A stretch of 64,000 nucleotides of DNA from Acidobacteriota bacterium (GTDB lineage: Bacteria; Acidobacteriota; Blastocatellia; Pyrinomonadales; Pyrinomonadaceae). Below the pieces are notes generated by a model, which saw nothing but the letters and a program-made list of their open reading frames with translations, did not search any database and was not told the origin of the DNA. The stretch is from the NCBI GenBank assembly GCA_003697135.1, contig RFGC01000035.1:248001-312000 (forward strand), written 5' to 3'. Of the stretch, positions 7,194 through 13,139 are shown piece by piece. The stretch's first letter is position 1; each line of letters opens with the position of its first letter. The position numbers were made by a program, and so were the translations under genes.

Positions 7194-10100
7194 ATGTCTA
7201 AGGTCTTCTGCCTTGCAGTTGTAGTGTGTCTTTTCTTGTCTTCTTCAGCACTGACTCAAGATTCCTTAGTCGTTGTCGAATCAAAACTCAAAGCAACTTT
7301 GCGGACAAATCCCGCAGAAGTTTTGGTTCCTATTATCAACAAAGGAAGCCCATTCTACGGGCAAATCAAGCTTGAAATGATTGACCCAAAAGGAAAAGCC
7401 AAAGCTGGGGCTTTAAGAAAAGTTAGCCTCAAAAGCGGTGAGGAAACATACAAAATTAAATTACCGCTCTTTGGCTCGATAAAGAAAGTAGGAAAAGATA
7501 TTCTTCTGTACCGTCTCAAATACACTATTTCAGATGCGAAGGGGCAGATACGAGCAGCTGGTATAGTCTCTTTTCCCAAGATTTCCGACAACATATTTGA
7601 ACTTCGAGTTTCGGGCTTAGAAGAAATTCTTCCAGGCATGGACTATCGGATTCGTGTATATGCTATCAACCCAATCAGCAATCTACCAGTTGAAGACATA
7701 AAAATTTATGGAAAATTAACGATAGAATCAGAAAAGCAAACTACCCAACTAAAAGCACAAAGCTTTACGAACAAAGAAGGTTTTGCAGTCTTGGGTTTCC
7801 GAATACCGTCAAGAATTAAACTCAGTGAACATTCAAGCGATTTGGAAATTGTAGGTGAAAAATTTGGATATATCAATAAAATTGAAGAAGAGGTTTCTTT
7901 CCCAAGTGAAAATTACATGGCTTATTTCAACACCGACAAGCCTATTTATCAGCCCGGTCAAATTTTCAATGCTAGAGTTTTGCTCCTAAGAAGGAATCAG
8001 CTCGAAACTACTGTAGTTGCTGATGCAGATTTGACATTTACAATCAAAGATCAAGAAGGAACAACTCTTTACAAGGAATCCGTCAAAACTTCTCAGTTCG
8101 GCATTGCTTCAATCTCATGGAAAATTCCGGAAAATGCCAAATTAGGAATCTACACCGTTGAGGTTGATTCAGACGATTTTCCTATAAATCAATCTCTAAG
8201 ATCATTCAAGGTTTCACGTTATGAACTACCGCAATTTACCGTGAGCGTCAAGACTGATCGAGAGTTTTATACATCTGCGGAGCAAAAGGCTAAAATAACT
8301 GTTTCCGCAGATTACATCTTCAACAAACCCGTAACCAGAGGCAAGATTCACATTGTTCAAGAAGGAGAAAGAGAGTGGAATTACAGTGAGCAGAGGTGGG
8401 AAATTGAAGAAGAAAGGTCCTACGAAGGCGAAACTGATGATCAAGGTGAATTTACCATGGAGATTGACCTAACCGAGGAGTATCGAAAGCTTAGAGAATA
8501 CGAAAGATACAAAGACCTAAACTTTACGGCTTATTTTACAGACCTAACGACTAACAGAACCGAACAACGTCGCTTTGATTTGCGACTAACCAAAGAACCA
8601 ATCCACGTTTATTTGAGAAAGGCTGATGATCCAAATCCCAACATACCTGAGATTTTCTATGTTTCAACTTTTTACGCTAATGGCTCGCCGGCTATCTGTG
8701 ATGTTGAGATTCTAGGCGGATATGAAGGTCAATCTCCACAAATCCTTGGCAGAACAAAAACAAACCAATATGGTGTTGGCAAGTTTACCTTCCTTCTCCC
8801 CACCAAACCTGCTGATAAAAACAAATTTTTGATAAATCTTAAGGCAGTTGATTCAGCGGGTCAAGAAGGAACTTATAAGGAGCACGTTTATATTTCAATC
8901 GGAGATACTTTGAGAATTAAACCAGATAAAACAATCTACCAAAGAGGTGAACCAATTAAGCTTAAGGTAGTTTCTACGAAGAGCGAAGGCAAGGTTTACC
9001 TAGATGTTTTTAAGAATTCTTTTCCTATCGCCTCGCAGGTCTCAAATCTCAAAGACGGATATACCGAAGTCGAGATACCATATCGAGAAAACTTCAATGG
9101 GATTTTGTCAATCCTTGCTTACATAGAAGAGATTAACAAAGAAGGCAATCTGATACTGATTAAAGACCAACGAAAAGTTATTTTCCCGGAAAAAGAGAAA
9201 TTACTACTGCTAAATACGAAACTTTCCAAAGAAGAATTTCGTCCCGGGGAAGAGGCACAGGTAGATTTTAGTGTTTTGTCACCTTCAAAGACTCCAGTTG
9301 AAAGTGCCCTTGGTGTTGTGGTTTTTGATAAAGCAATAGAAGAACGCGCTCAAGTAGATGTGGAGTTTGGAAGTTATCGCGAAATACTTTCCGATTTCAG
9401 ATTTCTGCTCAAAGAACAAAATCCAGTTCTTATAGATTTCAACAACGAAATAACACCAGACCTTCAACTCGTTGCAGAAAAAGAGCTTTTAGATTACGAC
9501 AGCTACGAAAACAGCTTATGGACGGAACAAAGCAATAATCTTCCCGACATGCGAATGGCATTTGCTGATTACTTCAAAAAGCAGTTCTTTTCTATCGAAA
9601 AATTTTTGATAAACGCTTATGCGAAGGACTACACTTATCCAAAGGACGAAGCATCGCTAAAGAAAATTTTGAACCAGAACGGACTGGATTATTCCCATTT
9701 TCGTGATCCCTGGAATGAAGCCTACAGAGTAAAATTTGAGGCAGAAGTAGTAAACGATATTCTTGCAATCGAATCCTCTGGTCCTGATAAAAAATTTGAC
9801 ACAAAAGATGACATCACGGTTCTGAAATTGGGATTTTCTCGCTTTTTGCCAATCGGTAAGACGATTGACAGAACCGTTGAAGAATACCACAAAAGAACAG
9901 GTAAATTCATACGCGATTACGAAACCTTGCGAGATGAGTTGAAAAAACAAAACATTGATTTAGACTCGCTAAAAGACATCTGGGGAGTTCCTTATAAGAT
10001 TAAATTCGATGTCAGCAAAAGAAAATATCTGATTCTTTTTTCCAGTGTTGGCTCTGGCTGGGAGTCAACCGTTTGGACAAACGAAATTGACTATTTTGCC

Positions 10101-13100
10101 GAAATAGAAACACAAATTCAAAAAGCTCTGGACCGATATTTAGCAGAAACAAAATCTTTCCCTCAAGATGAAGAAAGCTTTAGAAAAATTCTTAGAAATT
10201 ATGGAATAGACGAAAACTCACTCAAAGATGGATACGGGCAGGACCTATATTTGAACGTAACAGCTGGTCAGACTTATTCGGACAAGGTGAAGGTTAGAAA
10301 TGTTGCAAAATTCAGAAAAAAGCAAGTAGAAAAAGTTGAGATCGAGCGAACCGAGCAACAAATTATCTATCTCAAATTGCGAAGTAAGGGGCCAGATTCT
10401 CAAAAAGCAACTTATGACGACTTCGACATGGCTACTTTCTTCGGCATCATTCCCAAAGAAACTGCTCAACAAGCTGAGGCAGAAAAGAAAAAAACATCTG
10501 CTGACTCCAAATCCAGAGGAGCGCTCACAGGAACGATAACTGACAGCATAGGTGCAGTTATTGCAAACGCTAAAGTGACAGCAATAAATAAAGCAACAAA
10601 AGATGAGTTTGAAACTACGTCAAACAGCATGGGTCATTATCTTATCGAAAATCTTCCAGCAGGCCGATATGAAATCGTTGTCGAAGCCATCGGATTCAAA
10701 GAAACCGTAGTCGAAGATGTTTTGATCAGAAACAGGAGAATGACTAAACTTGACTTTCATCTCGAACCCGATAGCGTCGAATATCAGGTTGCAGTAGTTG
10801 CTCCAGAAGGTATCGAGATAATAGCCTCGGCAAACATCGCAGAGCATGTTGGATATGGATATGGGACTGGATACGGAACTGGAAGTGGATATGGCGCAGG
10901 AAGTGGAATGCTTGATAAAAGAAAAGCACCGAAAAACACGCCAAGACTTCGGGAGCATTTTCCTGAAACCTTGTTGTGGCAACCTGAACTAATCACCGAT
11001 CAAAGCGGCTCTGCACAAATCAGATTCAAGTTAGCCGATAATATCACCACATGGAAACTCTATGCTATCGCCTCCGACAAAAACGGAAATATCGGCATAG
11101 CCGAACATCAATTTCGTTCCTTTCAACCCTTTTTCGTTGATCTCGATCCGCCAAAGTTTCTCACTACCGGCGACCGCATCTCACTTCCTGTCCAATTAAG
11201 AAACTACACGCAAAGCAATCAAAAATTCAACGTCGAGATGAAAACAGAAAATTGGTTTGTTCCTATTGATTCGCAAATTAAACAAACAGAAGTGCCTGCA
11301 AATTCAAGCCAAAACGTGATATTTAGCTTTCTTGCTTTGAATCACACGAAAAACGGTAAGCAAAGAGTCACAGCAATCGGCGAAAATGATTCCGATGCCG
11401 TTGAAAAATCAATAACCGTTCGCCCTGATGGTCAGGAAATTATCAAAAGCCAAAGTGAGATTTTCAAAAGAACTGTAACATTTGATCTAGATTTTCCAAC
11501 AAGCATAATTCCAAACACTCAAACCGCAGAAGTCAAACTGTATCCGAATCTGATGGCACATATCACCGAATCAGTTGAAGGCTTACTGCAAAGACCTTAT
11601 GGGTGTGCCGAACAAACAATATCTTCAACATATCCCAACCTGATGATTTTAAGACTCAGCAAAAGTGAAAAACTCAAGCAAAAGGCAAAAGAGTATTTGC
11701 AAAAGGGCTACAACAGACTTATAGCTTATCAAAGCAATGATGGAGGCTTTTCCTACTGGGGTAAAAAAGAAACACCTGACATAGCCCTAACTGCTTATGC
11801 ACTGAAGTTTTTGACAGACGCCAAAAATTTCATAGAAGTCGATCAGGAAATTCTTTCAAACGCAAAAGACTGGCTCTTAAAACAACAACGTCCTGACGGT
11901 AGCTGGACGAAAACATACAACTGGGAAGCAGCAGAAAACAAAGAACGAACAAATTTGATAACAGCTTACGTTATAAGCGTGCTTGCAAGGTTGGAGAAAA
12001 AGCCTGACTTTAGAACAAGAAAATCGCTTGAAAAGGGACTTGATTTTCTGAAAAGGCAAATAACACATATAGAAGACCCTTACGTGTTGAGTTTAATAGG
12101 AACAGCACTCTTAGAATCTAAAAGATTTGCTGACGCAGTCACAATTGCCGAAAAGTTAAAGCAAAAGGCAATCGTGAAAGACGATTCAGCATATTGGGAC
12201 TTGAAAGCTGAGACCGCATTCTACGGGTGGGGAATAGCCGGACGAATGGAAACCACCGGTTCGGTTCTGGAGTTTCTATCATCACTAAACAAATTAAATC
12301 AAAAACAGGAAAACGCAAGCAAAGGAGCGAAAGCAAACAAACTAAGTTCGGCAAGTAGCCTTAAAACTTTAACAAACACAAAATATTCAAAAGGAAAAGA
12401 AAACTCAGCACAAGGGGAAAATTTGATTTCAAAAGGTGCGGTGTATCTAGTCAAAAACAAAGACAGATACGGCGTATGGTATTCGACACAGGCGACGATA
12501 AAGGTATTAGAAGGACTTTTGAAAGCGCTCGACTCGCAACAATATCTTCGAGCAACAAAAGCGGAAATTATTCTGAACGGAGAAAAGCTAAAAGAATTCG
12601 ACTTGACAAAAGAAGGAGAATCGCCGTTGTTTTTGGATATATCAGACAGACTGAACGGTCGCAACGACAGAGTTGAAATTAAGACCGATATTGATGTACC
12701 AATGATGGCACAAATTGTTTATGGTTACTATGTGAATTGGAAAGATACCGAGCTGAATAATGGAAACTACAGATTCAACTATAGTTGCGATAAAACAGAA
12801 GCCAAAATAGCAGAAGAAATAAGGTGTGTAGTCGAAATCAAAAGGTTAGAAGCACGATATGGAATGATAATAGCAGAGCTGGGATTACCGCCAGGAGCAG
12901 AAGTCGATAGAGCAAGTTTGGAAAAAGCAAGAAATGAAAACTGGTGGTTTAGAGAGTATGAGGTAATGCCAGACAAATTGGTAATGTATTTATGGACGAA
13001 TCCTGAAGGAATGAAAGCAGAATTCAGTTTTCGTGTTCGATATGGCATAGAGGCGCAAACCGGTGCATCTGTTGTATATGATTACTACAATGAAGAATCA

Positions 13101-13139
13101 AGATCAGTGCTTGCGCCCATGAAATTCGTCGTAAGATAA
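7194..13139 (+). CDS. Alpha-2-macroglobulin family protein with an inserted repeat region
   Basis: At 1981 residues this is the largest gene here. A signal peptide without lipobox cysteine (MSKVFCLAVVVCLFL) predicts a periplasmic or secreted product. Macroglobulin beta-sandwich domains follow (MG2 at about 245-340, with TDKPIYQPGQ). The A2M core segment (WQPELITDQSGSAQIRF) begins near 1263, and a thioester GCAEQ occupies 1470-1474 (Cys1471, Gln1474) before an all-helical thioester domain. These proteins trap proteases cleaving a bait region. Between the MG and A2M domains sit three pseudopilin-G-like modules (about 800-1085), a carboxypeptidase-regulatory-like domain (about 1108-1195) and a Gly/Tyr-rich strip (1220-1238). 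No pbpC accompanies it. AGGAG lies 7 bases before the ATG. Confidence 0.9.
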   Translation: MSKVFCLAVVVCLFLSSSALTQDSLVVVESKLKATLRTNPAEVLVPIINKGSPFYGQIKLEMIDPKGKAKAGALRKVSLKSGEETYKIKLPLFGSIKKVGKDILLYRLKYTISDAKGQIRAAGIVSFPKISDNIFELRVSGLEEILPGMDYRIRVYAINPISNLPVEDIKIYGKLTIESEKQTTQLKAQSFTNKEGFAVLGFRIPSRIKLSEHSSDLEIVGEKFGYINKIEEEVSFPSENYMAYFNTDKPIYQPGQIFNARVLLLRRNQLETTVVADADLTFTIKDQEGTTLYKESVKTSQFGIASISWKIPENAKLGIYTVEVDSDDFPINQSLRSFKVSRYELPQFTVSVKTDREFYTSAEQKAKITVSADYIFNKPVTRGKIHIVQEGEREWNYSEQRWEIEEERSYEGETDDQGEFTMEIDLTEEYRKLREYERYKDLNFTAYFTDLTTNRTEQRRFDLRLTKEPIHVYLRKADDPNPNIPEIFYVSTFYANGSPAICDVEILGGYEGQSPQILGRTKTNQYGVGKFTFLLPTKPADKNKFLINLKAVDSAGQEGTYKEHVYISIGDTLRIKPDKTIYQRGEPIKLKVVSTKSEGKVYLDVFKNSFPIASQVSNLKDGYTEVEIPYRENFNGILSILAYIEEINKEGNLILIKDQRKVIFPEKEKLLLLNTKLSKEEFRPGEEAQVDFSVLSPSKTPVESALGVVVFDKAIEERAQVDVEFGSYREILSDFRFLLKEQNPVLIDFNNEITPDLQLVAEKELLDYDSYENSLWTEQSNNLPDMRMAFADYFKKQFFSIEKFLINAYAKDYTYPKDEASLKKILNQNGLDYSHFRDPWNEAYRVKFEAEVVNDILAIESSGPDKKFDTKDDITVLKLGFSRFLPIGKTIDRTVEEYHKRTGKFIRDYETLRDELKKQNIDLDSLKDIWGVPYKIKFDVSKRKYLILFSSVGSGWESTVWTNEIDYFAEIETQIQKALDRYLAETKSFPQDEESFRKILRNYGIDENSLKDGYGQDLYLNVTAGQTYSDKVKVRNVAKFRKKQVEKVEIERTEQQIIYLKLRSKGPDSQKATYDDFDMATFFGIIPKETAQQAEAEKKKTSADSKSRGALTGTITDSIGAVIANAKVTAINKATKDEFETTSNSMGHYLIENLPAGRYEIVVEAIGFKETVVEDVLIRNRRMTKLDFHLEPDSVEYQVAVVAPEGIEIIASANIAEHVGYGYGTGYGTGSGYGAGSGMLDKRKAPKNTPRLREHFPETLLWQPELITDQSGSAQIRFKLADNITTWKLYAIASDKNGNIGIAEHQFRSFQPFFVDLDPPKFLTTGDRISLPVQLRNYTQSNQKFNVEMKTENWFVPIDSQIKQTEVPANSSQNVIFSFLALNHTKNGKQRVTAIGENDSDAVEKSITVRPDGQEIIKSQSEIFKRTVTFDLDFPTSIIPNTQTAEVKLYPNLMAHITESVEGLLQRPYGCAEQTISSTYPNLMILRLSKSEKLKQKAKEYLQKGYNRLIAYQSNDGGFSYWGKKETPDIALTAYALKFLTDAKNFIEVDQEILSNAKDWLLKQQRPDGSWTKTYNWEAAENKERTNLITAYVISVLARLEKKPDFRTRKSLEKGLDFLKRQITHIEDPYVLSLIGTALLESKRFADAVTIAEKLKQKAIVKDDSAYWDLKAETAFYGWGIAGRMETTGSVLEFLSSLNKLNQKQENASKGAKANKLSSASSLKTLTNTKYSKGKENSAQGENLISKGAVYLVKNKDRYGVWYSTQATIKVLEGLLKALDSQQYLRATKAEIILNGEKLKEFDLTKEGESPLFLDISDRLNGRNDRVEIKTDIDVPMMAQIVYGYYVNWKDTELNNGNYRFNYSCDKTEAKIAEEIRCVVEIKRLEARYGMIIAELGLPPGAEVDRASLEKARNENWWFREYEVMPDKLVMYLWTNPEGMKAEFSFRVRYGIEAQTGASVVYDYYNEESRSVLAPMKFVVR

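What the first reader, a model, noticed from the sequence alone, without database searches (positions are those of the whole stretch)
9595..10445. Three pseudopilin-G-like modules inserted in an alpha-2-macroglobulin
Residues about 800-1085 contain three successive segments with the T2SSG C-terminal pattern. The first holds DPWNEAYRVKF and ESSGPDKKFDTKDDI, the second DIWGVPYKIKFD and LFSSVGSG, the third a degraded KSFPQDEESF, GYGQDLYLN and SKGPDS series. The pattern DPWG-x-PY ... SxGPDGxxxTxDDI is established for major pseudopilins (GspG). I know of no macroglobulin with this module. They would sit between the MG domains and the bait/A2M core, possibly as protease-contact or docking domains; that role is inference.
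Basis: partly seen in the sequence, partly recalled or inferred. Interest (0 to 1): 0.65.

Follow-up and report, generated by a model that had tools for sequence, protein, structure and literature searches.

The report
Pseudopilin-like triplet in bacterial macroglobulin
A soil bacterium's alpha-2-macroglobulin, a protein of the kind that traps proteases, carries three copies of a folded domain otherwise known from the piston of a secretion machine, next to the stretch where proteases are expected to cut; relatives across one bacterial phylum share this layout, and I found no published description of it.

Summary
The ORF at 7194-13139 (+) is a 1981-residue macroglobulin with a thioester motif (GCAEQ). 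Residues 795-1084 are three tandem domains homologous to each other and to the C-terminal domain of the major pseudopilin GspG. AlphaFold gives three helix-helix-three-strand units, and the seven best structural matches to the first are all major pseudopilin (GspG) structures. The pilin N-terminal helix is absent. Modules 1 and 3 keep the side-chain calcium ligands of GspG; module 2 has lost its loop here but not in most relatives.

The insert splits MG6 at the bait-region site, where complement C3 carries its anaphylatoxin domain. It is followed by a CarboxypepD_reg domain and a variable, predicted-disordered bait that resembles the start of TonB-receptor plugs. The triplet is found in 37 of 119 genomes of the order and in nine families of Acidobacteriota. 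Relatives carry no module, one, three or four at this site; in a quick tree the triplet forms one group.

Most likely it is a protease trap with a calcium-stabilised arm next to the bait. Docking to a secretion filament is less likely: the genome lacks a canonical GspG. The function of the modules is inferred.

The parts
7194..13139 (+). alpha-2-macroglobulin family protein, 1981 aa, with an apparent signal peptide (MSKVFCLAVVVCLFLSSSALTQ); no lipobox seen by eye
   Evidence: ORF; Pfam MG2, MG3, A2M_BRD, A2M, TED_complement, A2M_recep; full-length homologues mostly 33-43% identical
8910..9338 (+). A2M_BRD domain (Pfam PF07703, MG5 and first half of MG6), residues 573-715
   Evidence: 27.7 bits against cut-off 22.7
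9576..9833 (+). pseudopilin-G-like module 1, residues 795-880, with a complete calcium-type loop (GPDKKFDTKDD)
   Evidence: Pfam T2SSG; PDB profile hits to GspG; AF2 and VIA-align
9834..10103 (+). pseudopilin-G-like module 2, residues 881-970, loop shortened in this copy
   Evidence: hhalign with module 1 E 2.2e-25; T2SSG in 11 of 29 relatives; same secondary structure
10104..10445 (+). pseudopilin-G-like module 3, residues 971-1084, with a long beta-hairpin insert and a complete loop (GPDSQKATYDD)
   Evidence: hhalign with modules 1 and 2 E 1.1e-23 and 5.9e-20; T2SSG in 8 of 29 relatives
10524..10766 (+). CarboxypepD_reg domain, residues 1111-1191
   Evidence: Pfam PF13620 69.7 bits, cut-off 32.3; similar to many CarboxypepD_reg-type stretches in the same genome
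10773..10934 (+). putative bait region, residues 1194-1247: variable in length and sequence, predicted disordered; in many relatives similar to the start of TonB-receptor plugs
   Evidence: AF2 pLDDT under 50 at residues 1194-1263; variability and receptor similarity; aligns with the residues just before VRKYFPETWIW in human A2M
10968..11240 (+). A2M domain (MG7), Pfam PF00207, residues 1259-1349; preceded by TPRLREHFPETLLW at 1249-1262
11553..12518 (+). thioester domain (TED), residues 1454-1775; thioester motif GCAEQ at residues 1470-1474 (DNA 11601-11615)

Best explanation
It is an exported, thioester-containing alpha-2-macroglobulin whose bait-region domain has been enlarged into a folded arm: three tandem domains homologous to the calcium-binding C-terminal domain of GspG, without the pilin helix, followed by a CarboxypepD_reg domain and a short disordered bait. 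Shown by sequence or prediction: the homology, the fold of module 1, the place of the insert and its conservation. Inferred: a protease cuts the exposed bait between the arm and MG7, the protein changes shape, and the thioester bonds the protease as in other A2Ms. The modules act as rigid, calcium-stabilised spacers that hold the bait out from the body and add bulk around the captured protease. They are not pilus subunits.
For: Domain order and thioester motif. Module homology. Fold: AF2 pLDDT 88.3, pTM 0.78, three aa-bbb units; the seven best VIA-align rows are all major pseudopilin (GspG) structures, Z 6.3 to 4.2, next unrelated row 3.1. Place: BRD ends at 715 and MG7 begins at 1259, with TPRLREHFPETLLW aligned to VRKYFPETWIW right after the human bait; low-confidence stretch just before it. 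Calcium-type loops in modules 1 and 3. Conservation and patchy spread across Acidobacteriota. Module-number series with one origin of the triplet in a quick tree.
Against: No functional data. Plain Foldseek gave no significant pseudopilin match for the three-module model; VIA-align Z values are below 8, and only module 1 was matched by fold. The calcium loop is lost in window module 2 and in some relatives, so calcium binding is not essential in every copy. The spacer role rests on position alone. The full AF2 model of the MG6 region has low overall confidence (pTM 0.42), so the arm's orientation is unknown.
Confidence: 0.6

Rival explanations
1. The modules are docking domains that bind a type II secretion or type IV pilus-like filament through pseudopilin-pseudopilin contacts, to place the macroglobulin at a secretion site or to export it.
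For: The modules are true GspG relatives. The genome has a T2SS-like cluster with GspE, GspF, a secretin and two pseudopilin-like proteins.
Against: No canonical GspG or GspD above the curated cut-offs in the window's genome, and canonical GspG in only 2 of 31 carrier genomes; the pseudopilins of its cluster lack the calcium loop. The modules lack the hydrophobic N-terminal helix by which pilins pack. The gene is not linked to secretion genes.
Confidence: 0.12
2. The insert is a binding or adhesion arm (to cell wall, outer membrane or a partner protein), with the GspG modules and the receptor-derived CarboxypepD_reg domain as interaction surfaces, and protease trapping secondary.
For: CarboxypepD_reg and GspG-type modules recur in other exported proteins of the phylum. 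Module sequences vary between relatives (23-56% identity to the window) while core motifs stay.
Against: MG7 and TED are the best conserved parts and the thioester is kept in nearly all of the triplet clade, which points to the trap as the main function.
Confidence: 0.2
3. The resemblance is limited to a generic GxDGx5DD calcium loop (PERCAL motif) grafted on unrelated folds.
For: That loop is known outside pseudopilins (PMC3396595).
Against: The similarity spans the YP..E..L helix region, DPWG..Y strand and loop, the fold of module 1 matches GspG, and module 2 is homologous although its loop is lost.
Confidence: 0.03
4. The insert is neutral domain accretion at a tolerant site with no selected role.
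For: Sister proteins carry one or a decayed module, and one (L173) has a hydrophobic, membrane-like stretch at the same site, so the site tolerates varied inserts.
Against: Three modules are kept across nine families with invariant D, W and DD positions, at about the same column conservation as MG1-5.
Confidence: 0.05

Closest known systems
Human alpha-2-macroglobulin and A2ML1 (PDB 6tav, 7q1y)
   Same: MG2, MG3, BRD, MG7, thioester TED and receptor-binding domain in the same order; PRLREHFPET aligns with VRKYFPET just after the bait
   Different: 544 residues between BRD and MG7, filled by three pseudopilin modules and a CarboxypepD_reg domain
Complement C3, C4 and C5
   Same: extra domain (ANA) inserted in MG6 at the equivalent site (own knowledge)
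   Different: the inserted domain is unrelated: pseudopilin modules without cysteines instead of a disulphide-bonded anaphylatoxin
Escherichia coli YfhM (ECAM)
   Same: bacterial exported A2M with thioester and disordered bait (PMC4498604)
   Different: only a weak match, to the MG7-TED part; ECAM has ten MG domains and is a lipoprotein; no pseudopilin modules
GspG/PulG/EpsG major pseudopilin (3g20, 3gn9, 3fu1, 5o2y)
   Same: fold of the C-terminal domain, DPWG motif, calcium ligand positions D117, T122 and D125 of 3g20
   Different: no N-terminal pilin helix or prepilin cleavage site; three copies inside another protein
Exported single-module T2SSG proteins of Acidobacteriota (e.g. L068, L070, L200)
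   Same: the same kind of module outside a pilin
   Different: small proteins of about 200-360 aa, with no macroglobulin part

Membership tests
alpha-2-macroglobulin family | MG2, BRD, A2M (MG7), TED and receptor-binding domains in order | tested here: met
   all above Pfam cut-offs
alpha-2-macroglobulin family | internal thioester motif GCxEQ | tested here: met
   GCAEQ at residues 1470-1474
alpha-2-macroglobulin family | disordered, variable bait region before MG7 | tested here: met
   pLDDT under 50 at 1194-1263; lower column conservation and variable length; prediction only
alpha-2-macroglobulin family | protease cleavage of the bait and covalent protease capture | not testable with these tools
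   needs biochemistry
GspG (T2SSG) domain | sequence profile of Pfam T2SSG | tested here: met
   module 1: 24.8 bits on the segment, cut-off 21, though 20.6 in the whole protein and 17.7 alone; modules 2 and 3 in the window are below the cut-off and follow by homology to module 1
GspG (T2SSG) domain | pseudopilin C-terminal fold | tested here: met
   module 1: VIA-align Z 6.3 to 3g20 over 98 residues, rmsd 4.7; modules 2 and 3 not matched separately
GspG (T2SSG) domain | calcium loop with D117, T122 and D125 equivalents | tested here: met
   modules 1 and 3 by sequence; module 2 in the window lacks it; binding itself not tested
type II secretion major pseudopilin (GspG protein) | N-terminal prepilin cleavage site and hydrophobic helix | tested here: not met
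   modules are internal to the protein; no pilin helix precedes them
type II secretion major pseudopilin (GspG protein) | gene in a T2SS operon | tested here: not met
   neighbouring genes are not T2SS genes and are not conserved among homologues
complement C3-type protein with anaphylatoxin | six-cysteine ANA domain in MG6 | tested here: not met
   no cysteine in residues 795-1084 (sequences)

The most novel reading that the evidence does not exclude
The arm is a releasable bacterial counterpart of an anaphylatoxin: it sits at the same site as C3a, has a low-confidence junction on each side (about residues 720-784 and 1194-1247), and cutting both would free a soluble three-pseudopilin plus CarboxypepD_reg fragment that signals protease attack or blocks an attacker's type II secretion or pilus machine by mimicry.
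Probability: 0.06. Interest if true: 0.9.

Novelty: new variant of a known kind. Interest (0 to 1): 0.55.

Why it matters
It shows that the bait-region site of macroglobulins, which in animals received the anaphylatoxin domain, has independently taken up folded domains in bacteria, with a readable series from no module to one, three and four. It also shows the GspG calcium domain living a life outside secretion filaments. Both make the design of bacterial protease traps testable.

Tried and rejected
Plain Foldseek of the three-module model gave only Hsp70-like rows with low TM-scores and no E under 0.001; rejected as noise of a three-domain query. PDB profile searches with modules 2 and 3 alone gave no meaningful hit. 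A phmmer search with the MG5/MG6 half found no macroglobulin, so the human alignment anchors only the downstream side; the upstream side rests on Pfam A2M_BRD and the family alignment. A conserved gene neighbourhood was looked for and not found. The first alignment for the search for related loci was too diverse. The careful tree did not finish; the quick tree was used. A paper on bacterial A2Ms (Budd et al. 2004) is not held.

Full report
What is there. The ORF at 7194-13139 (+) encodes 1981 residues. Pfam finds MG2 (243-340), MG3 (343-427), A2M_BRD (573-715), CarboxypepD_reg (1111-1191), A2M/MG7 (1259-1349), TED (1454-1775) and A2M_recep (1890-1971), plus T2SSG (796-872) just under its cut-off in the whole protein and above it on the segment (24.8 against 21 bits). 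The thioester motif is GCAEQ at 1470-1474. The protein starts with an apparent signal peptide; no lipobox was seen by eye.

The modules. Six-frame searches found the same insert in relatives of the order: by my count, 37 of 119 genomes have a match at E 1e-15 or better. I aligned 29 proteins including the window. All show three successive units with the pattern L..AL..Y....YP.DE.SL..IL....(D)F..LRDPWG.PYR..F......I.SAGPDK.FGT.DDF. Modules 1, 2 and 3 as separate alignments are homologous by profile comparison (2.2e-25, 1.1e-23 and 5.9e-20). T2SSG is the commonest Pfam hit in each set: 25, 11 and 8 of 29 members. A profile of module 1 picks GspG structures first in the PDB (3g20, E 0.0013; the best five are all GspG-type). 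The strict loop GxDx4TxDD is present in 25 of 29 first modules and 16 of 29 third modules; the second module has a longer loop with GxD and DD in 25 of 29. In shuffled proteins the strict loop is expected 0.003 times, against 1.45 observed.

Calcium. In 3g20 the ion is held by main-chain P114 and V119 and side chains D117, T122 and D125 (PMC3396595). Aligned to that, window modules 1 (GPDKKFDTKDD) and 3 (GPDSQKATYDD) keep all three side chains; module 2 (SSVGSGWESTVW) does not. Calcium binding is therefore likely for two modules but was not measured.

Structure. AlphaFold2 on 770-1092 with 32 sequences gave pLDDT 88.3 and pTM 0.78, with three helix-helix-three-strand units. VIA-align ranked 3g20, 3gn9, 2kep, 3fu1, 4lw9, 5o2y and 9a1f first (Z 6.3 to 4.2), all major pseudopilins, and the next unrelated row at 3.1. 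Z below 8 is modest, and only module 1 was matched; the agreement with the independent sequence evidence makes it convincing. Plain Foldseek did not find it.

Where the insert sits. BRD ends at residue 715 and MG7 begins at 1259. TPRLREHFPETLLW (1249-1262) aligns with VRKYFPETWIW of human A2M, and the stretch before it with the end of the human bait. A model of 566-1352 has pLDDT under 50 at 1194-1263 (overall pTM only 0.42). That stretch is the least conserved part (0.44 mean column identity against 0.53 for the modules and 0.76 for MG7), and with a few residues of the domain before it varies from 17 to 124 residues in length across the relatives, some of them partial. So the modules lie inside MG6 at the bait-region site, upstream of the bait. 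In complement C3 the anaphylatoxin domain is inserted at the equivalent site (own knowledge).

The rest of the arm. The CarboxypepD_reg domain resembles stretches of about 18 other long ORFs in the same genome, which I take to be mostly TonB-dependent, Oar-like receptors. In many relatives the similarity to two of these proteins runs on into the bait, with LPLNGRN..LL.L.PGV, the start of a receptor plug (best E about 1e-11 in a small database). The bait of these proteins seems to derive from a truncated receptor N-terminus.

Spread and history. In an even sample of the phylum 22 of 396 genomes, in nine families, have the insert. A scan of one genome per species of bacteria and archaea returned 35 loci, all in records labelled as Acidobacteriota groups, but only two short patterns were used, so absence elsewhere is not shown. 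The one other genome of the same genus held here lacks the gene. Macroglobulins found by their MG7-TED part fall into types by the same site: none (L180, L181), one module with GCFEQ thioester (L166, L167, L169-L172, L175-L177), a decayed one (L168, L174, L178, L179), three (the window's group), and four (L182, read by eye and by one of its two genes). In a quick maximum-likelihood tree of MG7-TED the three-module group (with L182) is one side of a 99% branch, one change against 15 in shuffles. The outgroup without insert suggests one insertion, then triplication once; the careful tree did not finish.

Link to secretion. The genome has no T2SSG match at E 0.05 and nothing over the cut-offs of the GspG and GspD equivalogs. 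It does have a T2SS-like cluster with GspE, GspF, secretin and two pseudopilin-like proteins without the calcium loop (names by eye). Among 31 carriers only two have a canonical GspG. Docking to a filament is therefore possible but not favoured. Gene neighbours are not conserved.

Mechanism. Best supported is a protease trap of the usual A2M kind (cut bait, shape change, thioester bond; PMC4498604) in which the modules form a rigid, probably calcium-stabilised arm that carries the bait. The domain order, homology, site and conservation are shown; cleavage, capture and the role of the arm are inferred.

Novelty. No paper in the held library has 'macroglobulin' together with 'pseudopilin' or 'T2SSG'. 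The parts are known; the combination, site and copy series are not described as far as I could find. I file it as a new variant of a known kind.

Noticed in passing
L067-L070, L199-L212 (other Acidobacteriota genomes): Small exported proteins of about 200-360 aa that end in a single T2SSG-type module without a pilin helix; many begin with a shared LTPKEARRLIA.MAG domain. The GspG domain seems to be a mobile module in this phylum.
   Followed up: partly
L173 (G446:C6), about residues 578-963 of its macroglobulin: A long hydrophobic, apparently multi-pass membrane stretch occupies the bait-region site in place of the pseudopilin module.
   Followed up: no
window 10773-10934 and the same stretch in relatives (e.g. 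L040, L044, L060, L063): The putative bait continues the CarboxypepD_reg domain with sequence like the start of a TonB-receptor plug.
   Followed up: partly
L059:4050-10061 (G000:C15): Second macroglobulin of the same genome, 2004 aa, without pseudopilin modules; the thioester motif appears to be lost (YPFESSES).
   Followed up: partly
L215:1751-9430 (G000:C13): T2SS-like cluster with GspF, GspE, a secretin of 815 aa with an extra C-terminal domain, two pseudopilin-like proteins and a GspL-like gene.
   Followed up: no
L182 (G126:C23): Two macroglobulin genes in tandem, with four pseudopilin-like modules by sequence.
   Followed up: partly
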